Shown: positions 15,110 to 64,000 of the stretch, piece by piece | Position numbering within the stretch: the first letter of the stretch is position 1 | Layout: each line of letters opens with the position of its first letter | Source: Lagopus muta | Lineage: Eukaryota; Chordata; Aves; Galliformes; Phasianidae | NCBI RefSeq assembly: GCF_023343835.1 | Contig: NC_064443.1 | Span: forward strand, 8,928,001-8,992,000 | Length of the DNA: 64,000 bases | Reading direction: 5' to 3' | Notes under the pieces: model-generated | What the model was told of the DNA's origin: nothing | The model's input: the letters and a program-made list of their open reading frames with translations, nothing else | The model's database searches: none | Program-made: the position numbers and the translations under genes

Positions 15110-18100
15110 GTAAGGGTGACTTTTGGGGTGAGAAACCTTTGTGGTCCTGACACTGCAAGGGCCCTGGCACAGCCATCCAGGTATGGCTGGCATCCTCCTG
15201 CAAGGCTTTGCTGCCTGCTGGCCCGGCTCACTTGGCCAACACAGGAGCAATGGGGCTGCGTCCCTCCCACGGCACCTTAGAGCTCTCCCAGAATGGCAAA
15301 AGGACTTTATCAGGGCTGTGCTAAATGCACTGCTTCACCAGGGGAAGCTCACTGGCAGTGCTTCTGGCACAGGCCCAGGTCTCCTTTTGGCTCCCAGTCC
15401 ATCGTGCACTTTCTTGTACAGTGGTCAGATGAGATTTCCACCAAATCAGTTGGTCTCTGTATGAAGAAGAAATAATGCCGAAGGCACAGCTGTGTGTGCC
15501 CTGCCTACAGGGCCTCTGAGCAGAGCAGGACCACAGGGTCAGTGCAGGAGATTTTCCACCCTCAGCACAAAGGGACTGGAGGGGAAACAAGCAGTCATGC
15601 TGCTGACTTACTGCCAACCTGCCCACCTGCTCTCCTGTGCTCTGATGGATACGTGGTTGATGACACATGGTCCATGTCAAGCTCACCCATGTTCCCCTGT
15701 GAAAATCAGGGAGGATCTGTTGAGCTGTGCATAGTTGATGGAAACCTGGGGCTGGCACTGGCTCCCTGAATGATACTGAGCCATTTTCACTGTGGAAGTG
15801 GAAATTCACAAAGGTCAGTTCCCTTGAACTCATTATCTTGATTTAATGAAACATGGGTGAAGAGGAAGGAAAAAGAGGGATGCTGAACCCCCATGGGAGG
15901 GAGGAGGCCTCTCTGCACAGTTTGTGCTTGCTTTGAGAAGGAGCCTTCCTCCCAGTGGCCTCCAGAAACAAAGGGCAGGGGCTGGGGGCAGCAGGGAGTT
16001 GGGGCTGGCTGCAGGATGGATTGCTCAGTGGGACACACATGGCAGGTGCTCTGTGTGGCTGTCCTGCCAATCACTCACTTGGTGCTGGGGAAGGATGTGT
16101 AGCTCAAAGGCAAGGGGAGTTTCCTGGGGGCAAGCAGTTGTATCAAAAACAAACAAAAAACCTACCAACAAATCCCAACCAGACCCTGCAAGGCTGCAGA
16201 AATACTTGTGCAGAGTGAAGCTGCCTTCATTGAGAGTTGAGCTCCCTGTCACGTGTGCTCCACCATCAGCTCTTCTCTCCAACCTCTAGGTGAAGACATC
16301 CCGATGTCTGCCCAAGTAAATGTCAATTTTCACAGTCAGGGAAGGGCTCAGTTATGTTTCTGCCCCTAGAAGATACTGGGCATAGTTTGGTACAAGTATG
16401 TATTAGAGCAGATAATGCGGTGATAGGCTTGTGATAGGAGCATGTGCCAGTGGGGCTGTGGGGTTGTGAGCAAATTCTCAGGAGTGCTGAGAAGGAGGAA
16501 CTACAGATGTGTGTCAGCCAAATATTTCCCTGGTGTCGGTGCTGGCTGCGGTTTAGTCACTGCCACGGGGAGAGGTCTGGGCAGGAGGGAGATGCTGACA
16601 GCTGCCTGTGCCAGCACGCATCCTGCAGGCACCGGTATTCAAAGTGATGGCTCATATCCTGAGTGCGGGAAAAAGGCCCTTGCTGTGCCATGGGGAAAAG
16701 GCTTCTTCTGTCCCTTAGTCCTGTTTCTTCCTCCTTCCCATCCCCGGTGTAAAACACTAAGCCCTTTGAAGGATATTCATCTCAATAGAGCAGTTTTCCC
16801 CCTTCTAAAGAGGTGATTGTGTGGGAATGCTCCGGAGGGAACTCGGTACAATTTTGCTTTGAGATAAGTGAGGCAGGAAGAGGAGTTAAGCTGCTCTGGT
16901 GCATGCACAATGAGCCTTTTAATGGACTGTGCTGTAGCAATTTGTTTGTTCTTTTTCCCTTTGATGCTGTTGCTAAGGCTTTTTAATTGTTCCCTTTCAG
17001 ATGCCGTTGAAATTATCCCTGGGTCAGCTTCCAGTGCCTCCTCCGTGAGCACCACGTCCCTGGACACCCTGTACACCCCTTCCTCCGCCTCAGACGCCGC
17101 TCTGCCCACGGCGGCCTCCAGCCCTGCCACCACACCTCCTCCCGTCCCCAGCCGCAGTGTGCACACCACCATCACACGGAACCTGGACACCGGCCCCGCG
17201 GCCCACTCCCGCTATACGTCTTCCCCAAAGAATGGGGCCAGCAAATCTCCTCAGGCCAAACGGGCTGCCCCAGCACCGCCATCCGAAGTGGGGGCCTCAA
17301 GGTCCCACGCTGCAGATGGGGAGAAGACTCTGCAGGGCAAGAAAGCTGCCCCGGCGGCCCCCACAAACCTGGAAGCATTCAGCTCTCTCTGTCTCGAAGA
17401 TAAGAAGGCTGCCATGGCGGAGCCAGTGCCACCGGAACCCAGCGGGCTGGTGGCATCTGTTCCCAAGACCATAGGTGCCGAACTGATCGAGTTGGTGCGC
17501 AGGAACACGCACCTCAGCTATGAGCTGTCACGCGTGGCCATCGGTGTGGTCATCGGCCACATCCAGACCTTGGTCCCGGCAACCAGCGGCATCATGGAGC
17601 AGATCCTCATCTCCGTAGTGGAGAGTAAGGTAAAGCAAGCAGGGCTCTATAGGCTGGCTGGTGCCAAGGGCTGGGGTAGTGTAGGGAGCACAACACAAGT
17701 TCTCTCCTGATGTTTGGAATGGGAAGTGCAGGAAGATGCCAAAGGGAAGGTGCTGGCTGGGGGTAAACAGCTAGCTGGGGAGATCGAGGGCTGTTGTTAA
17801 TCCATAAAAGGTTGAATCATAGAATCATTACTGTTGGAAAGACCACTGAGCATCTAGTGCAGCCATCAACCCATCACCACCATACCCACAGTCATTAAGG
17901 CTGGAAAGAGCACTAAGATCATCTAGTGAGGAATGCAAAGAGGTATTAAAGAACTCAAGAGAGATTTTACAAAATAAATAAATACAAGGGCAAGGAGCTT
18001 GCCATCAAAGAATGGGGAAAAACCTAGAGAGGATGTTGAGTGCGTAGAATGAATTAGCACTACCTGAGCAGAAGCACGAAGGGGAAGAGGAACTGCTCCA

Positions 18101-27100: not shown

Positions 27101-30100
27101 AAGCTCAGGCGTCTTGTGGAGCTTTGGCAAAGTCTGCATGCTCTTTGTTTATAGAGCCTCTGCTGATGGAGGTGGATTCTCAGGGTTATTGGGCTGAAAT
27201 GATTCTCTAGCATTTCTTCTCTTGTTCTGAGAGTAAATCTGCAAGCTGCCAACTGCTGCAAGTCCTTCAGCCAACTCCAGGAGCATTAGGAATGATGATG
27301 GCACCAGCCTGAGTGGTCAAAATCAAATTGAGCTGGCTAGCACTTAGAAATGGATTGATTTGTGCACAGAGAAGTCTTTCTGGGTTGGAGGGGGAGCCGG
27401 AACCAGGGAAGCATCATACATGGAAGGGAGCTTTTCCTTCAGCCTCACCGCTCTGGACGAAGGCTGCATTTTGTTATCACACAGCTCATATCCTGTGACT
27501 TTTGTTTCCCTGTAAAAATCTACTGAGGTGTATCCGTTAATTAACATTCAGGGAAGGCACCGGCTGTGGAATATTCACTTGGAGCTGCTGCCAGCACGAC
27601 TGGCATTGGACCGGCGGGCTGCAGGATGTGTTGGTGGTGGAGGTGTGTGCGGCCTGGGCAGTGGGCAGAGGCATGGCCTGAGCCGTGGGCAGGGACCTGG
27701 TGGTCTCCCCAGAGACTTTCCATCCCTCCAGGCAGAGCTGAGGTAGCAGAAGTGGAGCAGAGCTGAGGTGGTAATGAGCAGTGCAGCGCTCCGGGGGCGG
27801 CGGTGGTTGGAACAGGCGGCACTTCAGGGTGGCCAGATGGATGCTTTTTCTGGGTGCAGTAATTGCATAACTATGGGCTGCGTCCTGGGACTGCGCAGGG
27901 GAGGTTCTTCATTATTCACGTGGAGTTTGCCCACGTCCTCTTAAGTGGAAGGGAAAGAAAAAAAAAAAGAGAATTCTGTTGTGATTATTTTTAAATTAAT
28001 TTAGCAATGCATGGTGCAGAAGGCGTGTGCTTAAACAGGAAAACACCCTGATAGTTCAGTAAATACGAGAACAAAGAGCAGTGCAATCAGCGTGCAGTGT
28101 CTGTATTAAATATGTGGCTTAGCAGCTGAGGGTGCTGCACCAAACCCTCAGAACAATCAGTGGCAGAACCTCTGGGCTTCTCTTGCAGATCATCAGAAGA
28201 TGTGCTACTCTGCCCTGGTGCTGGCAATGATATTCTCCATGGGGGAGCCCCTTCCATACCATCATTATGGTAAGAGCAGCCTGTGCGTGTGTCAGCGCTG
28301 GTCATGGGGCACCTGGGGATGGAGCTTTTGTGGGACAGCTTGGGGCACGCTCAATGGCAGCAAGGTGACATTAGGGCCTCCTTTTCACCACTGGAGTCTC
28401 CCTGATGGAAACACAGAGCGGAGAGGCCAGGTTTTCAGTAAGAGCAGCACAAATCTGGCTTGGAGCAGAAGCATTCTGCCACGCTGCAGAAGGAGCAGTT
28501 TGCCCAGCACTGTGGCTCAGCAGCGTACTCATCCAAATGTTTTGTTGTACTGGTGCCCTGCACTACAGCACTCACCTCTTATTTGCCGCAGACACATTCT
28601 TTCTGATGCTAACTCAGATCGCTCCATGAATGTCCACTCAATCCATCAGCTGCATAATGTGGCCTCTCCCTGCTCTCCCTGGTAAGAAGGTGGCACAACC
28701 CTGTGAATTTCAAGTTCTTCATGCGAGTGGAGATGATTAAGAGTATTGCAGTCAAGAGGGAAGTGCAGGCATTGCTCCAGCTCTGCCTGTCGTACCCTTT
28801 CTTTTATGTCAACCTTCAGCTAGAAAGTGCTCTCTGCACGCTTCTTCCCCTGCCGTGTTGTGTTCCCAATACTTGGGAAGCTCTGGATTCAGCTTTCCTA
28901 GAAATGCAATGAAGATTTTTATAATTATCTCCTCAGCAGCTTCACCTTAACACTCCAATAACCACGTGCAAGGTATAAGCTGGTGCAGTGGGGACTGAGG
29001 AGCGAGTCTTCACATCTCCTGCTTTTCTCTCCTCGTGTAACCCTGGCAATTATTTCCAGCAGGTGGACTTATTTGCATGAGCTCCTGAGCTTTCCTAATA
29101 GCTAAATTGAAAAATGGGTTATTACTAATGATCTGGATGATTACCCTTTTTTTTTTTTTTAAATAGATGGATTAGACCAGTGGTCAAGAATACAAATCTC
29201 TGCCTACCTGAAGCCTTCATTGGTGACAGTGGTGCTGGAACAGCAGCTGGAGCGGAATTTGGCATTCTGTTTACTCAAACAATAAATTTAAAAAAAGCCA
29301 GTGGGAAATGAGCATTCAGCATTTGTGTGAACTGTGGGTAATTCTGAGCCATTTGTCTCTTGCACAAAGCCATTTGTTAACTTCCTGGTGGCTAACACTG
29401 GCACTCCAGTAGTGGCTTTAAGCCTAAAGGCACGGAGAAGTGGCTCACGTGGTCCCTCATTGCTTGGTGTACCTTCCTGGTGATGTAAGTGCTGTCTTTA
29501 TCCTTCTGCAGAACATCTCAACTCTCAGTTTGTGCAGTTCTTGCTGGATGTGATTGAAGATGGGCTGCCCTCAGACACCACCGACCAACTCCCTGACCTG
29601 TTCATCAACGTCCTTCTGGCCTTCAATCTCCATATTCCAGGTCGGTTTGGTGCTAGTCTGCCCTGGCAGGACCCCAGAGGTCAGGACCAGTGAGGGGATG
29701 AAGAGTGGGGATGCAGAATCTCACTGGGACTTGATGGTGTTGTGACAACCTGTGCAGCTCTCTCAGCCTCCAGCAGCACACTGTTTCTACTTTTGTCTGT
29801 TCAAATACCGTACAAAACTCTAGAGGGAAAATCAGGCTGAGAGCCCATGTCCAACCAGCTGACCCTCTACAGCACAGCAGCCATGAAGTGCAGTGGATTT
29901 CTGTCTGTACATGCAAGCTGGCTGGATCAAAGCAACTGCTGGGCTACAGGACACGTGTATGGCTAACTTGTAGGCACAGCTAATTTGGAAGGGAGCATGC
30001 TTCAATGGGCATTTCTTGGTATCTGTCCAGAAAAAAAAGTTTTTGCTTTAAGAAGGTCTTCACAAACCTTCTGCTTACCCAGCTGCACTTCTTGAACCCT

Positions 30101-34726: not shown

Positions 34727-35042
34727 TGGTTGGAGGGGGCCTTAAAGATCGTCTCATTGCAACCCCCTGCCATGGGCTGGTTGCCCCCCACCAGCTCACG
34801 CTGCCCAGGGCCCCATCTATGGCTATGAGCACCTCCAGGGATGGGGCATCGCAGCTCTGGGCAGCCTTGCCACTGCCTCGCTGCCGTGAGCACAGAATTT
34901 CATCCTAACATCTAACCTACATCTCCCCTCTTGTAGCTTAAAGCCATTCCCCCTCTGCTATCCAGCCCTGTCACAAGCCGGTCTCACTCCTGCTTCTACT
35001 CGTGCTCCCTTCAAGTGTTGGAAGCCTGTCCCCATGTGAGAG
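34727..35042 (-). repeat. CR1 LINE fragment between NCKIPSD and CELSR3
   Basis: A ~316-bp reverse-orientation CR1 copy: GGTTGGAGGGGGCCTTAAAG, CCCCTGCCATGGGCTGGTTG, CACCTCCAGGGATGGGGCAT, TTCATCCTAACATCTAACC, AGCCATTCCCCCTCTGCTAT, and CTCCCTTCAAGTGTTGGAAG at the far end. It fills most of the intergenic gap and stops about 120 bases before the CELSR3 CpG island. Confidence 0.92.
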
Positions 35043-35159
35043 GTGCTCCAGCGCTCCGAGCATCCCGGCACTGCTCCTCATCCTCCCCGAGCTGTCAGCT
35101 GGGTAATTAGCACAAGTCACCTGGCAAGCCGTCAGCACATTTTAAAAGCATGGGCCCTG

Positions 35160-36300
35160 CTGCTGGGGCTCCGTGACGGCAGACGCTGCGGTGCGGCAGC
35201 GCGGGATGCCGAGCGCCCGCGAGGACGCGAGCCCGCCCGCCCTCGGGCCGTTACACGTACGAGGCCGCGATCTTTGTTAGCCGGGCCGTAAGAAAGCCCA
35301 CGCGGAGCCGCCCTGGGAAGATGGGACCGCGCGTCCGCCCCACTCCGCCGGCCCGCAGCGGCGCCCCGTCCCCGGCCGGCGGCGGGCAACCCCGCACCGC
35401 CGCTCCTCCCTCCCCAAGATGGCGGCGGGGCGGGGCGGCCATGTTGGGATGCGGGAGGAGCCGCCACTCCCGGCGGCGGCGGCGGCGCGGCGCGGGGCGG
35501 GGGGCGGTGCCGAGAGCAGCGCCGTGCGGCCGGGCCGGGCCGGGCGGCGGCCGCCGAGCAGCATGGCGGCGGAGGAGCGGCCGCCGAGCCGCCGCCGAGC
35601 CCGGCGGGGGCCGCCGCTTTTGCCGCTGCTGCCGCTGCTGCTGCTCCCTTTGTTTCCCCCCGGGCTGGGGGCCGCCGCTCCGCCGGGCCGGGGGCCGCCG
35701 TGTCTCGGGGGCTGCCGTCCCGCCGCCGCGCCGCGCTTTGGGGCGGCCGCCCTTCCCCCGGGGCCGCCCGCGGCTCCGCGCCGCCGCTCCCCGCCGCGCT
35801 GCCCGCCCCGCGCCGCCCAGCCGAGACCGCGGAGGGGGCGTCGGGCGGCCCCCAACCGGCACCCGCTGTTCCCGCAGTACAACTACCAGGCGGAGGTGGC
35901 CGAGAACCAGCCCGCGGGCACGGCCGTGGTAGCGGTGGCGGCGCAGGACCCCGACGGGGGCGAGGCGGGGCGGCTGGTGTACTCCATGGACGCGCTGATG
36001 AACAGCCGCTCGCTGGAGCTCTTCAGCATCGACCCTCACGCCGGGCTCATTACCACCACCCAAGCCCTCGACCGCGAGAGCATGGAGCTGCACTACTTCC
36101 GAGTGACGGCCGCTGACCACGGGGCGCCCCGTCTGTCTGCCACCACCATGGTGGCCATCGCCGTGGCCGACCGCAACGACCACGACCCGGTGTTCGAGCA
36201 GGGCGAGTACCGGGAGACCATCCGAGAGAATGTGGAGGAGGGTTACCCCATCTTGCAGCTGCGTGCCACCGATGTCGACTCGCCGCCCAACGCCAACATC
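35160..36300 (+). promoter_or_regulatory. CELSR3: CELSR3 promoter and first-exon CpG island
   Basis: An abrupt rise to very high GC and CpG density just before and across the start of CELSR3 exon 1, with no TATA box: a typical CpG-island promoter of a developmental gene. Island density continues through the codons for the signal peptide, the basic linker and the first cadherin repeat. The transcription start was not located; it probably lies between about 35200 and 35420. Confidence 0.8.
35415..35426 (+). promoter_or_regulatory. CELSR3: YY1-type motif CAAGATGGCGGC
   Basis: A perfect YY1 core (AAGATGGCGGC), an element usually located at or just downstream of the transcription start of CpG-island genes. 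Its ATG (35419) is in frame with CELSR3 and would add 48 residues, but that start would bury the signal peptide. I read it as 5' UTR. A related inverted element (GCGGCCATGTTG, 35436-35447) and the main start (ATGGCGGCGG, 35563) resemble the same core. Confidence 0.5.
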
Positions 36301-38632
36301 CGCTACCGCTTCGTCAACGAGAGGGCGGCCCACGCCGTCTTCGAGATCGACCCGCGCTCTGGGCTCATCACCACCAGCGGGCCGGTGGACAGGGAGAAGA
36401 TGGAGAGGTACTCCTTAGTGGTGGAAGCCAACGATCAGGGCAGGGAACCGGGACCTCGCTCTGCCACCGTCAAGGTGTACATCACGGTGCTCGATGAGAA
36501 CGATAACACGCCGCAGTTCAGTGAGAAGCGCTACATCGTCCAGGTGAGGGAGGACATACGGCCACACACCGAAATCTTGCGCGTCACCGCCACCGATTTG
36601 GACAAGGACAACAACGCACTCGTCCACTACAACATCATCAGTGGGAACAGCCGGGGCCAGTTCTCTATCGACAGTGTCACTGGGGAGATCCAGGTCGTTG
36701 CCCCGCTGGATTTTGAGGTGGAGCGCGAGTATGCCCTGAGGATCCGGGCGCAGGATGCGGGCCGCCCGCCGCTCTCCAACAACACCGGCATGGCCAGCAT
36801 CCAGGTGGTGGACATCAACGACCATGCCCCCATCTTTGTCAGCACCCCTTTCCAAATCTCCGTCCTGGAGAACGCGCCTCTCGGCCATTCCGTCATCCAC
36901 ATCCAGGCTGTGGACGCAGACTATGGCGAGAATGCACGTCTGGAGTATAAGCTGACCGGGGTCTCGGCCGACACACCCTTTGTGGTGAACAGTGCCACAG
37001 GATGGATCACGGTCAGCGGGCCTTTGGACCGGGAGTTGGTAGAGCACTATTTTTTTGGGGTGGAGGCTCGTGATCACGGCTCTCCATCATTATCTGCCTC
37101 CGCCAGCGTCACCATCACAGTCATGGATGTCAACGACAATCGCCCCGAGTTCACCCAGAAGGAGTACTTTATTCGCCTGAATGAGGATGCGGCTGTGGGG
37201 ACCAGCGTCCTTAGTGTCACGGCAATCGATCGGGACGTGAACAGTGCCATCACTTACCAGATCACAGGAGGCAACACGCGGAACCGCTTTGCTATCAGCA
37301 CGCAGGGCGGAGTGGGGATCATCACTCTGTCCCTGCCGCTGGACTACAAGCAGGAGCGGCGCTACGTGCTCACTGTGACGGCCTCCGACCGCACGCTGCG
37401 GGACAACTGTCATGTGCACATCAACATCACTGATGCCAACACGCACAGGCCGGTATTCCAGAGTGCGCACTACTCTGTGAGCATCAATGAGGACCGGCCC
37501 GTGGGCAGCACTGTGGTGGTGATCAGTGCCACAGATGATGACGTGGGGGAAAACGCTCGCATCACGTACTACCTAGAAGACAACGTCCCTCAGTTTCGCA
37601 TCGATCCGGACTCGGGGGCCATCACTCTCCAGGCAGAGCTGGATTATGAGGACCAGGTCACCTACACGTTGGCTATCACAGCCAAAGACAACGGGATCCC
37701 CCAGAAAGCAGACACTACCTATGTTGAAATCATGGTGAATGATGTTAATGATAATGCGCCCCAGTTTGTCAGCACTCATTACCAGGGCGTGATCTCTGAG
37801 GACGCACCTCCTTTCACCAGCGTGCTCCAGATCTCTGCCACCGACCGGGATGCCCACACCAATGGGAGAGTACAGTACACCTTCCAGAACGGGGAGGATG
37901 GGGATGGAGACTTCACCATAGAACCCACCTCAGGGATCATTCGCACTGTCCGCAGGCTGGACCGGGAGAATGTCCCGGTCTATGAGTTGACTGCATATGC
38001 TGTGGACAGGGGCATCCCTGCTCAGCGAACTCCTGTCCATATCCAAGTGACCATTCAGGATGTGAACGACAATGCCCCCGTCTTTCCAGCTGAGGAGTTT
38101 GAGGTCTTGGTAAAAGAGAACAGCATTGTAGGCTCTGTTGTGGCTCAAATCACAGCCATTGACCCGGATGAGGGACCCAACGCCCAGATAATGTATCAAA
38201 TTGTGGAAGGCAACATCCCTGAGATATTCCAGATGGACATCTTCTCTGGAGAGCTCACGGCTTTGATAGACCTGGATTATGAGACAAAACCAGAGTATGT
38301 GATTGTAGTGCAGGCCACCTCTGCCCCTTTGGTCAGCAGAGCCACGGTGCACATCAAACTCATTGACCAGAACGACAACAGCCCTGTTCTCAAGAACTTC
38401 CAGATCCTATTCAATAACTATGTGTCCAATAAATCCAATACCTTTCCCTCCGGAGTCATAGGGAAGGTTCCAGCGTATGATCCAGATGTGTCTGACCGTC
38501 TCTTCTACACCTTTGAACGGGGAAATGAACTGCACTTGTTGATTGTAAACCAGTCGAGTGGGGAGCTGAGGCTGAGCCGTAAGCTGGACAACAACCGTCC
38601 ACTCGTGGCTTCCATGCTGGTGACTGTCACAG
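35563..38632 (+). CDS. CELSR3: CELSR3 exon 1: signal peptide, basic linker and cadherin repeats EC1-EC9
   Basis: One 3070-base exon encodes the adhesive ectodomain. The hydrophobic core [15 protein letters not shown] is followed by an Arg/Pro/Ala-rich linker ending [14 protein letters not shown], a furin-like R-x-R-R site just before EC1. Inter-repeat linker motifs lie at about residues 203 (DRNDH), 311 (DENDN), 417 (DINDH), 522 (DVNDN), 624 (DANTH), 727 (DVNDN), 832 (DVNDN) and 935 (DQNDN), defining nine repeats. The fifth linker lacks the canonical calcium ligands; human has the same sequence there. Repeats EC2-EC9 are far closer to human than the linker, which is roughly 200 residues shorter. 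A single large cadherin exon is typical of CELSR genes. Confidence 0.97.
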
Positions 38633-41600
38633 GTAGGCATGCAAACCTTTAAATGCATGATTTGGGGTGTTATCCCCTGGGGGGCTTTGCACAGTCCCTC
38701 TTTGCATGGCAGCCCATTGTGAATCTGTGTGGGCTGGGACTGACAACAAGGTTTGGATGGGGAATTACGTCAAATCGGGAAATGCTGAAGGGTCTGGGAA
38801 TCTTGGAAAGGGTTGCATGCTGTAGGAGAGCATTTTGCAAAGGGGCTGAGATCACTGGTGGTGTGAAAGAACAAAGCATCGTTACTCAGCTGTGAGGATC
38901 TCATCTAGCTGCCAGCAAGACACCTTTGGAGATGCTGTCACCAGTGAATCAGTGATGTATGCCCTGGGGTGCTGGCCAAGCAAACTGTGTGTTCCTGGGG
39001 TGGCCAAGCTGGCCACGCTACTCCGAGCCCCAGGCGAGTTCTCCTCGCCAGGAAAGGATGCATTTCCTAGCTGCACTGGAGAGGGATGGGCTGGACTGCT
39101 GGAGGGTACCATTAAGCAAACAATTCAGGTCTGGGTTCTGGCCATGACATCTATTGATGCCTGTGGCTTCTAAATTTTGGGGTCTGTGTTCTGAAGTCAA
39201 CTTCGCATTGCATATAATGACTGTAACGGACTTCGGAGAGAGGTGTTTAAAACTCCCATTGTGTTGCTGGAGTATCCAAATGCAGATGCTGGTGGTGGCT
39301 CCCTGGAGTGGTTAGGGGAAGCATAACGGTCACCTCTCGCTAGGAGGGGGTGGGGCACAGATCAACCCAGGGCTTGTCTGAATTTGAGGTAGTGTCTGTG
39401 TGTGAAGCTGCCTGAGCTTTGCTAGCACTGCAAGCCTTTCTTTGCTTGTGGATGCATCATCTGAAATGGAGGCATCCATCCATCCAGTGCTGAAACAAGG
39501 AGCAGCTCTGGGGAAGGGAGGGCAGGAGCCCTCTTTGAAGGGCCCAAACAGTGAATCACAAAGCACGCTTGAGAACTGTGCTTTAAATTGCAGTTCTCCC
39601 CTGACTACCAGCTGACACCCTTCCCACCCCCATTCTATCCAGCTTATTCAGCAGGAGGAAAAAATATTTCAAAAGATGGAGTGATGGCTCTAGCAGACCT
39701 GTTCAGGGCATGGCCAGCTCTAGCCATCGGTGGAATTAGTCTCTTTGGGGACTAATTGTAGCTGCAGGGCTGGTTGGCCCCACACACACACGCATGCTGG
39801 TTGCTGGAGGTGGGGGCTGGTTTTGACCTTTTCAGCTTCTTTCCCAGTGTGTTTCTGCAAGCCCAGCCTCCTTGCACACTTAACCCCTCACAAAGGCAGG
39901 AGAAAATCACATTGCAAAGTCCTGCGCTGAGCTGCCTGGCAGCGAGAGGGCCCCTGCAATTAGTGTGTCGTCATCTTCTAGCAGGATGGGAGAATAGGAG
40001 AGGTGCACTAGCAGAGGGGAGAATGGAGGGGGAAGAGCCGTGCAGTGGGGGGGGGAGAGAGGGGGAACACAGCGAGGCAGTGGGAAGCAGGCCTTTGTTG
40101 GCTCTGACAGAGCTGCGGAGAGCTGGCTTGTTGCTCCCTTCTTCATTGTTCAGGCTTCCAGCGACAGCCCGTCCGCCCCCGGCGCCGTAGCCGTGCAGCT
40201 CCAGGGCTGCATTGTCTGCCCCAGCCCAGCTCGTTCCTCTTGAGGGAAGGCAACGAGCTCGTAGCTGGGTGCCGCTGCGCTTGGGGGCTCGCAGGGACAG
40301 GGCGGCCACCGCAAACCAGCGCCTTTCTGGGGGACCCACCGGGCTCAGCACCACGGACAGCTCCTCGCAGCCACGTGGGCGCCGTGCGTGCTGGAAATGG
40401 CTGCTCATTCCGAGCCGCCCTCATTCCGGGGGCTGAGCGGATCGGCGTTCTTCTCAAGTCAGGCACGAGTCCCAGGGCTGCCTCTCCCTTTTGCAACTTG
40501 TATCGCTTCTCTCCTCAGGAGCCCTGTCTCAGGAACCTCCTCCCTGTTAGGTCCCCTATAGCCGGAGGAGCTGACCGTGACTTGTGATGAGAAATGCGGG
40601 TTTCTGTTCCTGGTTAGGGAGTGGGTCTGATGTCTTCTTGGTTATTATACTTCAGTCCCTGTCTTTATTGATGCTGGGAGAACGACATTCATAGCGCTGT
40701 CTTGGGAATTATGATTTACTTCTGAGAGAGAGTTCTGCAGAAGCCCTGTGGGGTTTTAGTGAGGCTTGGCCATGCCATGCTGATGGCAACCAGACGTGGC
40801 AGTGGGGCTCACACAATGGCCTCCAGTGGCTTCTTGGCCTGTAGGATGGAGGAGTGGTCGAAAGCCTGAGTGTGCCCTGTTGGTGACAGGACACCAAAGT
40901 CCCTCGGGTGGGTGCTGCACAGGAGGCTTGGGAGCAGTGAGGAGGACAGGGGCGATGGGGTCTGTCTCTGGCTGCGCTGCTTTTGAAGCTGTTAGATGTC
41001 ACTCTGGGAATTGCAGCTATGCTGACCTGGCACTGCCCAGCACTGTGATCAGAGCCTCAGGCCTTTCTCCTTGTCCTGCAGGCATGTTTTGGGGTACCTC
41101 TTACTGCTGCATGAATATTCACCAGGCACCAGCTCTCCAGCCACAGGATTTAATCAGGAAGGCTGAGCATCCGTGATTAAAATACTTCCCATGGGGGTCA
41201 GTGCCTCCAGCCAGCTTTGGGTTTTCTTTTGGTAGCTTTTTGTTTTCTTCTTTTTATCCCCCTTTCATTTACAGAGGGTCATTCTTCCAACCATCTGCTT
41301 CCTCTTGCATGGAGCTGACAAGGAGGTGGCCTTGGCTGCGAGGTGAACCTTATAGAAGGTGTTCCTGCTGAGAAATGCTAGTTCAAATTGTGTCTCGGAG
41401 TGGTGATGATGATGGAGAGCAGAGTTTCCAAAGAAACACTGGGTTTGGGGCTTGGTGAATGTAGAGTGGGAGATGGAGTCATGGATGATCACCCTGCGCT
41501 GCTGACGTGTGGGGCTGATGGTGTTGGAATGATGTGAATGACCTGGGAGATGGGTTGCTGTCTTTTGCCAGGTTAGTGGGGTTCCTGGTGGGCCTCAGTA

Positions 41601-44600
41601 GATGTTTCTGGGGCCACAAAGGAGGGCGCATTGTGCTGCCTTGGAGGTGGTTCACGTGGTGTGAGGCCCTGAGGGGCGGGGAGATGGTTTCCAAGGAAAA
41701 TATAGATGAAAGAGAATTAAACAAACCGGAGGTGGGCCTGGAGAAGAAGGGATGTGGAGCAGATGCTGAGACAGGGGAAGCAGGGAGACCAGCACAAAAG
41801 CCTTGGAGGCCCTGGAGGAGAGAGGAAAGAGATGGCAGGAAGAGAGTGGGTAAGGGCAGCACAGAGGGGGGCAGTGGGGGAGTAAAGCACCCCGGGTGCT
41901 GGCACTGGCTCCAGTGTTTGTCCAACCTCCTGCTGTGGCTGCCTTCTGCCTGCTGCTCAGCAGCATCCTTGTTGTGAGAGCTCAGTCGGCTGCCCAGATC
42001 CAGAATGAGGAAGGAACCTGGCAGTTATCTCAGAGGAGAGCCTGGTGCAGGTAGCACCCAGGTTACTCCTTGGGCTACAACTTCAAGGTTTCTTAGCCAA
42101 GAATGCAGCACACTGTATTCATACACTGAGCCAGGAGGGAGGAGACCTGCAGCACATCTCTGTTCTGTCCCGCAGACGGCATCCACAGCGTGACAGCCCA
42201 GTGTGTTCTGCGGGTGATCATCATCACAGAGGACATGCTGGCCAACAGCATCACAGTGCGCCTGGAGAACATGTGGCAGGAGCGCTTCCTCTCCCCGCTG
42301 CTGGCCACCTTCCTGGAAGGGGTGGCCACTGTGCTTGCGACGCCCAAGGAGGATGTCTTCATCTTCAACATCCAGAACGACACGGACGTGGGTGGCACAG
42401 TGCTCAACGTCAGCTTCTCGGCCCTGGCACCGCGGGGTGGGCACTACTTCAGCTCGGAGGAGCTGCAGGAGCAGCTGTACATGAAGCGCATGGCGCTGAC
42501 GGGAGCCTCCATGCTGGAGGTGCTGCCCTTTGATGATAACGTCTGCCTGCGGGAGCCCTGCCAGAACTACATGAAGTGTATCTCTGTCCTCAAGTTTGAC
42601 AGCTCTGCGCCCTTCATCACCTCCCCGTCCACTCTGTTCCGCCCCATCCACCCCATTACTGGCCTGAGGTGCCGCTGCCCGCAGGGCTTCACTGGTGACT
42701 ACTGCGAAACGGAGATCAATCTGTGCTATTCCAACCCCTGCCTGCACGGAGGGACCTGCACGCGCAAGGAGGGCGGCTACACCTGTGTGTGCCGCCAGCA
42801 CTTCAGTGGTGAGTGCCAGCCAGGGGCTCCCCAGCTGTCCCCCTCCCATGGGCTCCAGGACCATCCAAAGCAGTTTTAAGCCGGTGACACACTAACACGA
42901 TGGGAAGCTTCAGCCTTCCCCCTGAGCTTGGACAGGGAGGGCCCGCTGTCTCACTGGGCAGGATCCATCCTGGCCCCTGGGACTCCCCCCCAGTGCCTTG
43001 CAGCCACACTAGGCCCCACCAGGCCATGGAGACCTGTGCCCAGCCACTGTCAGCATGGGGTGAGAGAAGGTGGCCTGTGGCTACAAGGGAGGCAGGGGAG
43101 TGCGGCAGCAGATGGTTGCCTCAGTGCTGCTCAGCTCCTGGTGAGATAAGCGGAGTCAGTGGTAATTAACCCCTGGCATTTGAAGCGTGAACAGCCATTA
43201 GCAGAAGGGTTAATGAGCTCATTTCACTGTCACTTCATGCTGTCTCCGCATCCTCCTCCTTGTGTGTGAGCAAGCAATGGGAACCAGGCCTGGGGCGTAG
43301 GGCTGAGCAATTGGTTACTGCGCTGCTGTGAGCCTCGCCAGGGCCTTTGGGTGAGCAGAGCCAGCTGAAGAGAGGCCAGGTAAACCTGGTGGGCTGGCCC
43401 TGAGGTCAGCTGTGGGCACTGAGGAAGCAGGGAGGAGTTCCCAGCCCTTCACTGGAGGTGAGCAAGGTTCAAGGTGGTCGGTTTCCTCACCCAGCTGGGT
43501 TCCTCTCTACTTGGCCCAAGTGCCAGCACCCACCTGCAGGGCTAGGGAGCTCCTGGTGCCGTGGGTGAGGAGCAGCTGAGGGCACACATCCCACACTCCC
43601 CATTCTGTCTCTCACAGGTGAGAACTGCGAGGTGGACAGCCGCTCGGGGCGCTGCCAGCCCGGCGTGTGCCACAACGGGGGCACCTGCACCAATGGCGCC
43701 GACGGGGGCTTCCGCTGCCAGTGCCCAGCGGGCGGCTTCGAGACCCCCTTCTGCGAGCTGTCCACGCGCTCCTTCCCACCCCGCTCCTTTGTCATGTTCC
43801 GGGGCCTACGCCAGCGTTTCCACCTCACCCTCTCCCTCTCGTGAGTTCTCTCTCTCCTCTGCTGGTGGCCCTCTGGACCTCCTGTCCTCTCTTCCCATCC
43901 CCATGCTGGGTGCTGCCGCATGCTCCCTGCGTGCACCCAGTGTTCCCACTGATTCCCTGCCCAGGTTCAGCACGGTGGAGCCTGGCGGCCTCCTGCTGTA
44001 CAATGGGCGCCTGAACGAGCGGCACGACTTCTTGGCAGTGGAGATCATCCAGGGGCAGGTCCAGCTGAAGTACTCCACAGGTAGGCTTGGCCCTACCTAC
44101 TGTGGGATTTGGGCCATGGGAGCTGCAAAGAGGGGGGTTCCTGCAGCTGCTGATCACCTTGAGTTCGCCTCCTGCCTGGCCACGGGTTGATTTGGAGTTG
44201 AGGACCCTCTTGGATGGGTGTTGATTGTGCAGATCACATTGGCTCTGCATGTTCATCTTCCTGCAGCATTTATCTCTGTCCCTGCAGGGGAGTCCAGCAC
44301 AGTGGTGAGCCCATACCTGCCTGGGGGTGTGAGCGATGGGCAGTGGCACACGCTGCAGCTCCGTTACTACAACAAGGTATCGTGCCCAACTGTGCACCAG
44401 CTCTTTGTCCCCTGAGGCCATCTGTACCCACCTCAAACGGCTTGCTGTGCTCAGTGAGTGCAGTGGTGCCAGGCTCCCTGTCCTTTTCTTGCTGTAAGGT
44501 GAGCTGTGGGGTGTTTGGATCTGGGGGGACATGTGCTGCTGACACTGTGTCTTTGCTTTCAGCCCAAGCTCAGTGCCCTGGGAGTGGTTCAGGGCCCTTC

Positions 44601-62256: not shown

Positions 62257-63859
62257 ATGGCGGCAGAGATGGTGCTGAGCCGCCGGCCCGGGCAGCCCCG
62301 CGGTGAAGTTCTGAGTGAGGCTGACCTGGAGGAGCTGGCACAGAGGAAGCCTCCCAGCAAGACTTCAACACGCGACTGTCTCCCGAAGGCAAGGTAGGGC
62401 TGGGGGAATAGAGCTGGGTGATCCATGCAGGGCTGCATCTCTGGGTTCCTCTGCTGCCCAGCAGTGCTGGTGCCCCTACGTTCAGCCCTGGCTCCCACTC
62501 CTTCCCCTGCAGATGCTCAGCCTCCACCGCCAAGTCCCTGCTCTTCCGCTTCTTACCTGTCCTGCGCTGGCTGCCCCGCTACCCTGTAAAGGACTGGCTG
62601 CTTGGGGACATTGCCTCAGGCTTCAGTGTGGGCATCATGCACCTGCCCCAGGGTGAGTGATGTGTCCCCATGCCGTGCCCTGCGTGAGGTTCTCAAGGGG
62701 TGAGGGCCAGGACTCATCCATCCATAACATTTCTCCCTGCTCTGCTGTGCCCAGGGCTTGCCTATGCACTGCTTGCTGGGCTGCCACCTGTCACCGGCCT
62801 CTACTCCTCCTTCTACCCCGTCTTCCTCTACTTCTTCTTCGGGACATCCAGACACAACTCCGTGGGTGAGCCAAGGGGCTGTGTGCGGCCATGGGAACGG
62901 AGGGGAGGGAGAGAGAATGAGAGGGATGAGATTTTATCTATGGCACAACGTTGCCGTGCCAATGAGCAAGAGGGTGGAGGGGCCTTTCTTCTGCCTTCAC
63001 TTTACCTCACCAAGAAGGCAGTTGGCCAAAACAGAGCCAAAGCACCATGGGCACACTGAACAAGTGGTCATGTGCCTACTTTCTCAGAGAGGCCCCAACT
63101 GGTTGCCAAGCTCTGAACTTGGACTCCTTTCCTGCACATCCCCAGGTCCCTTCGCTGTCATATCCGTCATGATTGGCAGCGTGACAGACTCCTTGGTGCC
63201 CAGTGAGGACTTTATGGAGTTTGACAATGGCACCAATGGTACAGTAGTCAATGAGGCACAGCGGGATGCTGCCAGGGTAGAGCTGGTAGCCACCATCACA
63301 GTCCTGTCAGGAATCTTCCAGGTAAGGACCTAGCATGGACTTGTGGCTGTGGTGTCCCCATGCCCACAAGCTGTGGGACCTCCTACTGTCACCTTTCCTT
63401 CCAGGTGGCCCTGGGCCTCCTGCAGTTTGGCTTTGTGGTGACCTACCTCTCAGACCCACTAGTGCGTGGCTACACTACTGCTGCCTCTGTGCACGTCCTC
63501 ATCTCCCAGCTCAAGAATGTCTTTGGTGTCTCCCTAGGAGAGCACTCAGGGCCACTCTCATTGTTTGTGGTGAGTGAGGGGCTCATTGACACTCTGGAAT
63601 CCCCAGATGTGGTAAAGCATCACCTACAGGATACATAGAGTCTCCCCAAAAGAGCTAACAGCAAGCTATCTATCTGCTTTCTCTCATTCCCTCCTGCATC
63701 CTCCAGACCCTCATTGAGATCTGCAAGAAGCTGCCGGAGACCAATGTGGGCACCTTGGTTACAGCCATCATTGCCATGGTGGCCATCTTCATTGTGAAGG
63801 AGCTCAACCACAAGTTCTCTGCCAAGCTCCCCATGCCCATCCCCATCGAGCTCATCACG
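62257..63859 (+). CDS. SLC26A6: SLC26A6 anion exchanger (PAT1), coding exons 1-6; gene continues past the window
   Basis: An electrogenic Cl-/HCO3-/oxalate/formate exchanger of apical epithelial membranes. Exons: 62257-62393, 62513-62652, 62755-62865, 63146-63321, 63405-63569, 63707-63859; all GT-AG with matching phases, 294 codons so far. Conserved blocks are [37 protein letters not shown], the sulfate-permease signature region [40 protein letters not shown] and the end [11 protein letters not shown]. Two sequons (NGTNGT) sit in the expected glycosylated loop. The N-terminus diverges from mammals, and the start (GCCATGG context, -3 G) was chosen as the first ATG after a possible acceptor; Met5 is an alternative. 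The C-terminal STAS domain is outside the window. SLC26A6 rather than another SLC26 member is chosen from sequence and from its place next to CELSR3. Confidence 0.93.
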
Positions 63860-64000
63860 GTACTCAGAGCTGTCCCAGCTCTCCAAGGGGACACAGCCAT
63901 GGCCTGGGGCAGGTGCCATCACCCATAGATGTCTCTGTGCCCTGCAGGGTGATGGGGGGTGGGACAGGGTGCCTCTGCAAAGGTGGCTCCAGGGCACACA

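What the first reader, a model, noticed from the sequence alone, without database searches (positions are those of the whole stretch)
40344..40364. Near-consensus REST (RE1) element in CELSR3 intron 1 of a bird
The 21-bp element agrees with the RE1 consensus at about 19 positions (core CAGCACCACGGACAG) with canonical half-site spacing, and sits inside an intronic CpG-rich patch. CELSR3 is a neuronal adhesion GPCR, so silencing by REST outside neurons is a coherent mechanism. Presence in a bird implies an old regulatory switch or independent gain.
Basis: partly seen in the sequence, partly recalled or inferred. Interest (0 to 1): 0.8.

Follow-up and report, generated by a model that had tools for sequence, protein, structure and literature searches.

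The report
REST silencer site in bird CELSR3
A gene for wiring nerve cells, in what looks like a bird genome, carries in its first intron an almost perfect copy of the well-known DNA switch that keeps neuronal genes off in other cells; the gene is already known to be controlled this way in mammals, so the find is real but expected, apart from an unusually sharp patch of G and C letters seen around this and other such switches in the same genome.

Summary
Window 40344-40364 (+) reads CTCAGCACCACGGACAGCTCC: 19 or 18 of 21 RE1 matches depending on the linker base, all 14 core positions exact, 2-bp gap. No other window site comes near it. It lies mid-way in intron 1 (38633-42175) of CELSR3. Chance is unlikely: the exact core occurs 137 times in this 1.03-Gb genome against 7 for the reversed pattern. 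REST fingers are encoded in the genome. No such site was seen at two CELSR-like paralogues where I could look. Novelty is low: Celsr3 is a published REST target in mouse and human (PMC2573930, PMC8096226; passages). The human peak described lies in exon 1 on tandem half-sites; this exon 1 shows no comparable pair, so the binding position may differ. Around 60 RE1s examined, GC and CpG peak within about 200 bp of the motif; shuffled motifs, matched less strictly, give almost none. Occupancy, silencing and cross-species conservation could not be tested.

The parts
40344..40364 (+). Canonical RE1/NRSE, CTCAGCACCACGGACAGCTCC, 2-bp half-site gap
   Evidence: exact core is one of 137 in the genome vs 7 reversed
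40344..40352 (+). Left half-site CTCAGCACC (1 mismatch to TTCAGCACC)
40355..40364 (+). Right half-site GGACAGCTCC (1 mismatch to GGACAGCGCC)
40100..40500 (.). GC- and CpG-rich patch around the RE1 (CpG observed/expected about 0.6-0.8 in 200-bp windows starting 40100-40400; 0.06-0.50 in the other windows of the intron scanned)
38633..42175 (+). CELSR3 intron 1 (GT at 38633, AG ending 42175); no Rfam family at gathering score, no tandem array at score 50 in 38600-42200
35587..38632 (+). CELSR3 exon 1, the coding part used as query (cadherin repeats; the 5' end of the exon was not determined). No half-site pair above 7.2 bits at gaps 5-13 in 35000-38632
42176..42837 (+). CELSR3 exon 2 with the stretch read in frame (its true 3' end was not determined)

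Best explanation
The element is a genuine RE1. In non-neuronal cells and neural progenitors the animal's REST binds it and recruits co-repressors, helping to hold CELSR3 off from a position about 5 kb inside the gene's GC-rich 5' region; when REST falls in maturing neurons, CELSR3 is released. Shown here: the motif, its rarity against a reversed control, its place in intron 1, REST fingers encoded in the genome, no like site in intron 1 of the CELSR2-like paralogue. Inferred: occupancy, repression, cell types. The CpG-rich patch is most simply the usual surroundings of a strong RE1 in this genome.
For: Exact core 137 vs 7 reversed in the genome, so by count about 5% of such sites would be chance. 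14 of 14 core positions exact. CELSR3 identity: named CELSR3 proteins 80-91% identical, named CELSR2 and CELSR1 proteins 65-68% (120 rows shown of 1265); sulfate-permease family exons follow. REST fingers 94% identical over 87 residues of the query. Celsr3 was REST-occupied and among the most induced genes in both mouse ES and neural stem cells (PMC2573930, passage); normalising Rest restored Celsr3 in Rcor1/2 mutant mice (PMC7070449, passage); REST peak at human CELSR3 (PMC8096226, passage). The CpG patch resembles that of other RE1s. No like site: best match 7 mismatches in the 3.5-kb locus that holds the CELSR2-like intron 1; no core-exact site within 13 Mb of the CELSR1-like locus.
Against: No occupancy, methylation or expression data for this animal. 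In a human reporter screen 2,657 canonical-motif sites (31%, of 8,436 selected) repressed strongly at 1% FDR in at least one setting (PMC9903721, passages), so a good motif does not guarantee silencing. The human peak described is in exon 1. NRSE places were mostly not conserved between frog and human (PMC4430910, passages). PMC4371837 lists Celsr3 with the value -1.7 in a table whose heading I did not see. The matrix score is partly circular.
Confidence: 0.8

Rival explanations
1. Chance match inside a GC-rich patch, never bound.
For: The patch raises the local chance of a GC-rich word; 7 reversed-core matches exist in the genome.
Against: About 1.4e-6 matches at 19 of 21 expected in a 500-bp patch at 66% GC (1.6e-5 at 18 of 21 of the ATGG form, independent bases); shuffled motifs do not sit in such patches (weaker matches than the RE1s); known REST target gene.
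Confidence: 0.06
2. REST binds, but the site acts otherwise: as a weak or context-dependent element in an intronic CpG-rich enhancer or alternative promoter, so that its loss changes level or isoform rather than switching the gene.
For: Intronic CpG-rich patch; 31% of canonical human sites repressed strongly in the screen.
Against: The patch is about 400 bp and like that of other RE1s; no transcript data either way.
Confidence: 0.12
3. Compatible with the best explanation: REST control of CELSR3 is old but its site has moved, tandem half-sites in exon 1 in mammals, a canonical RE1 in intron 1 here.
For: Human peak in the first exon with four tandem half-sites (PMC8096226, passage); here 35000-38632 has no half-site pair above 7.2 bits at gaps 5-13, against 34.3 for the intronic site.
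Against: The passage does not exclude a further intronic site in mammals; no mammal or reptile DNA was compared; the matrix is tuned to canonical sites and may miss diverged half-sites. Isolated left half-sites such as GTCAGCACC at 36838 do exist in exon 1.
Confidence: 0.35

Closest known systems
Canonical RE1/NRSE bound by REST/NRSF (motif named JASPAR MA0138.2 in PMC9903721; letters recalled)
   Same: 21 bp, two half-sites with a 2-bp gap, C at position 9, in a neuronal gene
   Different: Nothing in the sequence; occupancy unproven; host appears to be a bird
REST sites of human CELSR3 (PMC8096226, passage seen; it cites Jia et al. 2014, which is not held)
   Same: Same gene, same presumed factor
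   Different: Human peak described in exon 1 with four tandem half-sites; here one canonical site in intron 1
GC-rich surroundings of C2H2 factor motifs (PMC4561487, passages seen)
   Same: Raised GC reaching 300 bp from bound motifs; C2H2 factors tend to GC-rich surroundings
   Different: Here seen at RE1s chosen by sequence in one genome without binding data, GC 0.79 beside the motif in 40 sites; REST itself did not appear in the passages I saw

Membership tests
Canonical RE1/NRSE | 21-bp motif with conserved core positions 2-9 and 12-17 | tested here: met
   14 of 14 core, 18-19 of 21 overall
Canonical RE1/NRSE | Half-sites in order with a 2-bp gap | tested here: met
   CTCAGCACC-AC-GGACAGCTCC
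Canonical RE1/NRSE | Motif more frequent in the genome than a matched control pattern | tested here: met
   137 vs 7; 288 vs 3
Canonical RE1/NRSE | A REST protein able to read it exists in the organism | tested here: met
Canonical RE1/NRSE | Bound by REST in vivo | not testable with these tools
   No ChIP data
Canonical RE1/NRSE | Silences the linked gene | not testable with these tools
   No reporter or expression data
Deeply conserved RE1 (same place across vertebrates) | Orthologous motif in the aligned intron of mammals or reptiles | not testable with these tools
   No other vertebrate DNA searchable here
Human-type tandem half-site element of CELSR3 exon 1 | Left and right half-sites at non-canonical spacing in exon 1 | tested here: inconclusive
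   No pair above 7.2 bits at gaps 5-13; human letters not compared, matrix tuned to canonical sites

The most novel reading that the evidence does not exclude
The GC- and CpG-rich patch centred on this RE1, and on 40 of the 60 other RE1s examined, is an evolutionary scar: REST binding keeps these spots open and unmethylated in the germ line, and in a bird without PRDM9 they then draw recombination and GC-biased gene conversion, so that each old RE1 grows its own small GC island. GC counted without CpG also peaks, which low methylation alone would not give.
Probability: 0.15. Interest if true: 0.6.

Novelty: new member of a known kind. Interest (0 to 1): 0.33.

Why it matters
It extends a known neuron-restriction switch on CELSR3 to what looks like a bird, at a position that may differ from the published human one, and so gives a concrete test of whether REST control is kept while its binding site moves. 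The RE1-centred GC peaks make a second question testable by computation: do repressor sites shape local base composition in birds?

Tried and rejected
Repeat or transposon origin: not supported. The 481 bp around the site found only themselves in the genome (the tool warns that very common words are skipped), no tandem array in 38600-42200 at score 50, no Rfam family there. CELSR2 or CELSR1 instead of CELSR3: rejected by named homologs; two other CELSR-like first exons exist in the genome, their labels CELSR1 and CELSR2 being my inference. A second RE1 close by: none within 150 bp at up to 5 mismatches at CELSR3, while 12 of the 60 other loci have one. A shared second motif in the flanks: only CG-rich hexamers came out on top (no background correction). 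One search was a first GC profile whose central bin still held the motif; replace it. One search failed (stop codons in one frame) and was redone with mended coordinates. Pfam gave no family for the upstream pieces 16868-17707 and 28110-28682, so the NCKIPSD label rests on recall alone. The relaxed NRSE count and a genome-wide reversed-core control did not complete. Cross-species DNA alignment, ChIP and expression were out of reach.

Full report
What is there. The 21-mer CTCAGCACCACGGACAGCTCC lies at 40344-40364 on the + strand. It matches 19 of 21 positions of the canonical RE1 with linker AC and 18 of 21 with linker AT; with the AC form the mismatches are position 1 (C for T) and 19 (T for G). 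All positions called core in PMC1794552 (2-9 and 12-17; passage) are exact, and the 2-bp gap is the canonical one (PMC8096226 and PMC9903721, passages). The consensus letters are recalled.

Is it chance? In the window it is the only match at up to 3 mismatches, 0.03 expected from shuffles. With independent bases, 8.7e-5 matches at 19 of 21 are expected in the window and 0.27 in the genome; for 18 of 21 of the ATGG form 1.5e-3 and 7.6. The empirical control is better: the exact core TCAGCACCNNGGACAG occurs 71+66 times in the 1.03-Gb genome, its reversed form 7+0 times. A longer degenerate pattern, written to include this site, gives 152+136 at up to 2 mismatches against 0+3. A matrix built from 60 of these genome sites gives it 34.3 of 37.5 bits, above 28 of the 60; the next place in the window scores 10.7. 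It is an ordinary, strong member of the genome's RE1 set.

Where it lies. Exon 1 ends at 38632 before GTAGG and exon 2 starts at 42176 after CCGCAG, in frame, so intron 1 is 38633-42175 and the RE1 is near its middle. Exon 1 encodes cadherin repeats. Among the 120 rows shown (of 1265 hits), named CELSR3 proteins of geckos, frogs and a porcupine are 84-91% identical and of fish 80-81%; named CELSR2 and CELSR1 proteins are 65-68%. Exons of a sulfate-permease family gene follow (pieces within 62688-63925), which fits SLC26A6, the mammalian neighbour as I recall it. The organism is named by no call; a 1.03-Gb genome with contigs C1 and C2 of 195 and 110 Mb looks avian, perhaps galliform, from recall.

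Paralogues. The genome holds two more CELSR-like first exons, C1:15527644-15530715 and pieces at C27:1180370-1182971, which I take to be CELSR1 and CELSR2. The C27 intron 1 lies within L069, and the best RE1 match in the whole 3.5-kb locus has 7 mismatches. On C1 no core-exact site is listed between 0.11 and 28.69 Mb, nor any with up to 1 mismatch to the longer pattern between 0.11 and 30.9 Mb; sites with 2 mismatches were not listed. So, as far as could be seen, CELSR3 is the one with such a site.

The factor.

What is known. Celsr3 was REST-occupied and among the most induced genes in both mouse ES and neural stem cells (PMC2573930, passage). Normalising Rest fully restored Celsr3 in Rcor1/2 mutant mice (PMC7070449, passage). 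Celsr3 is named as a REST target in pancreas and nervous system (PMC5323410, passage). [quoted passage not shown] a probe with all four gave two shifted bands (PMC8096226, passage), which cites Jia et al. 2014, not held. PMC4371837 lists Celsr3 with the value -1.7 in a table whose heading I did not see. Here 35000-38632 has no half-site pair above 7.2 bits at gaps of 5-13, though single left half-sites such as GTCAGCACC at 36838 occur. This may mean that control was kept while the site moved, but it is weak: human letters were not compared and the matrix favours canonical sites. In the listings, and the passages I saw of some of those papers, I found no report of an avian CELSR3 RE1; most of these papers I did not open.

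The CpG patch. I fetched 60 of the 288 genome RE1s: the 37 zero-mismatch sites other than this one, and 23 of the 62 one-mismatch sites listed, the first 25 in listing order less two, all on contigs C1-C3. In the first 40 (37 zero- and 3 one-mismatch), GC is 0.79 in the 20 bp beside the motif, 0.52 at 200-300 bp and 0.45 at 1.2-1.9 kb; CpG falls from 16 to 1.6 per 100 bp; GC counted without CpG falls from 0.69 to 0.43. In the other 20, GC falls from 0.70 to 0.41. The 300 bp around the masked motif hold more CpG than every other window more than 450 bp away in the 4-kb locus in 40 of 60 loci, and not in 20, several of which lie in broad CpG-rich regions. Shuffled motifs of the same composition give 0.575 to 0.55 in the window (882 matches at 14 of 21 or better) and 0.57 to 0.53 in the same loci (267 matches at 15 of 21 or better; the reversed consensus, 55 matches at 13 of 21 or better, 0.58 to 0.53). 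These controls match more weakly than the RE1s, so they may understate the pull of GC-rich places; the stricter genome-wide control did not complete. At CELSR3 the patch holds 22 CpG in 300 bp against at most 10 elsewhere. The simplest reading is the GC-rich surroundings reported for C2H2 factors (PMC4561487, passages). A bolder one is low germ-line methylation plus GC-biased gene conversion: birds lack Prdm9, and in flycatchers crossovers concentrate at promoters and CpG islands, with transmission bias to G and C at non-crossovers (PMC4878770, passages). Nothing here separates the two.

Verdict. A true RE1 by sequence, a plausible REST silencer of CELSR3, a new member of a known kind on a known target gene. 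Occupancy, silencing and age of the site remain untested.

Noticed in passing
L009-L068 (60 genome RE1 loci) and window 40100-40500: GC and CpG peak sharply within about 200 bp of RE1 motifs; shuffled motifs, matched less strictly, show almost no peak.
   Followed up: partly
L019, L022, L027, L036, L043, L052, L054, L056, L059, L060, L061, L065: 12 of 60 RE1 loci have a second RE1-like site (up to 5 mismatches) within 150 bp, 10 on the same strand and 2 on the other; CELSR3 has none.
   Followed up: no
G000:C3:48769536-48769692: Four core-exact RE1 cores spaced 34, 68 and 34 bp, which looks like a minisatellite array (sequence not fetched).
   Followed up: no
G000:C17:12516731-12516818, C18:2167515-2167564, C2:44014979-44015016: Three, two and two core-exact RE1 cores 22-37 bp apart on one strand.
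   Followed up: no
window 16868-17707 and 28110-28682: Upstream open frames that look like NCKIPSD from recall; Pfam gave no family.
   Followed up: partly
window 62688-63925: Sulfate-permease family exons downstream of CELSR3, fitting SLC26A6.
   Followed up: partly
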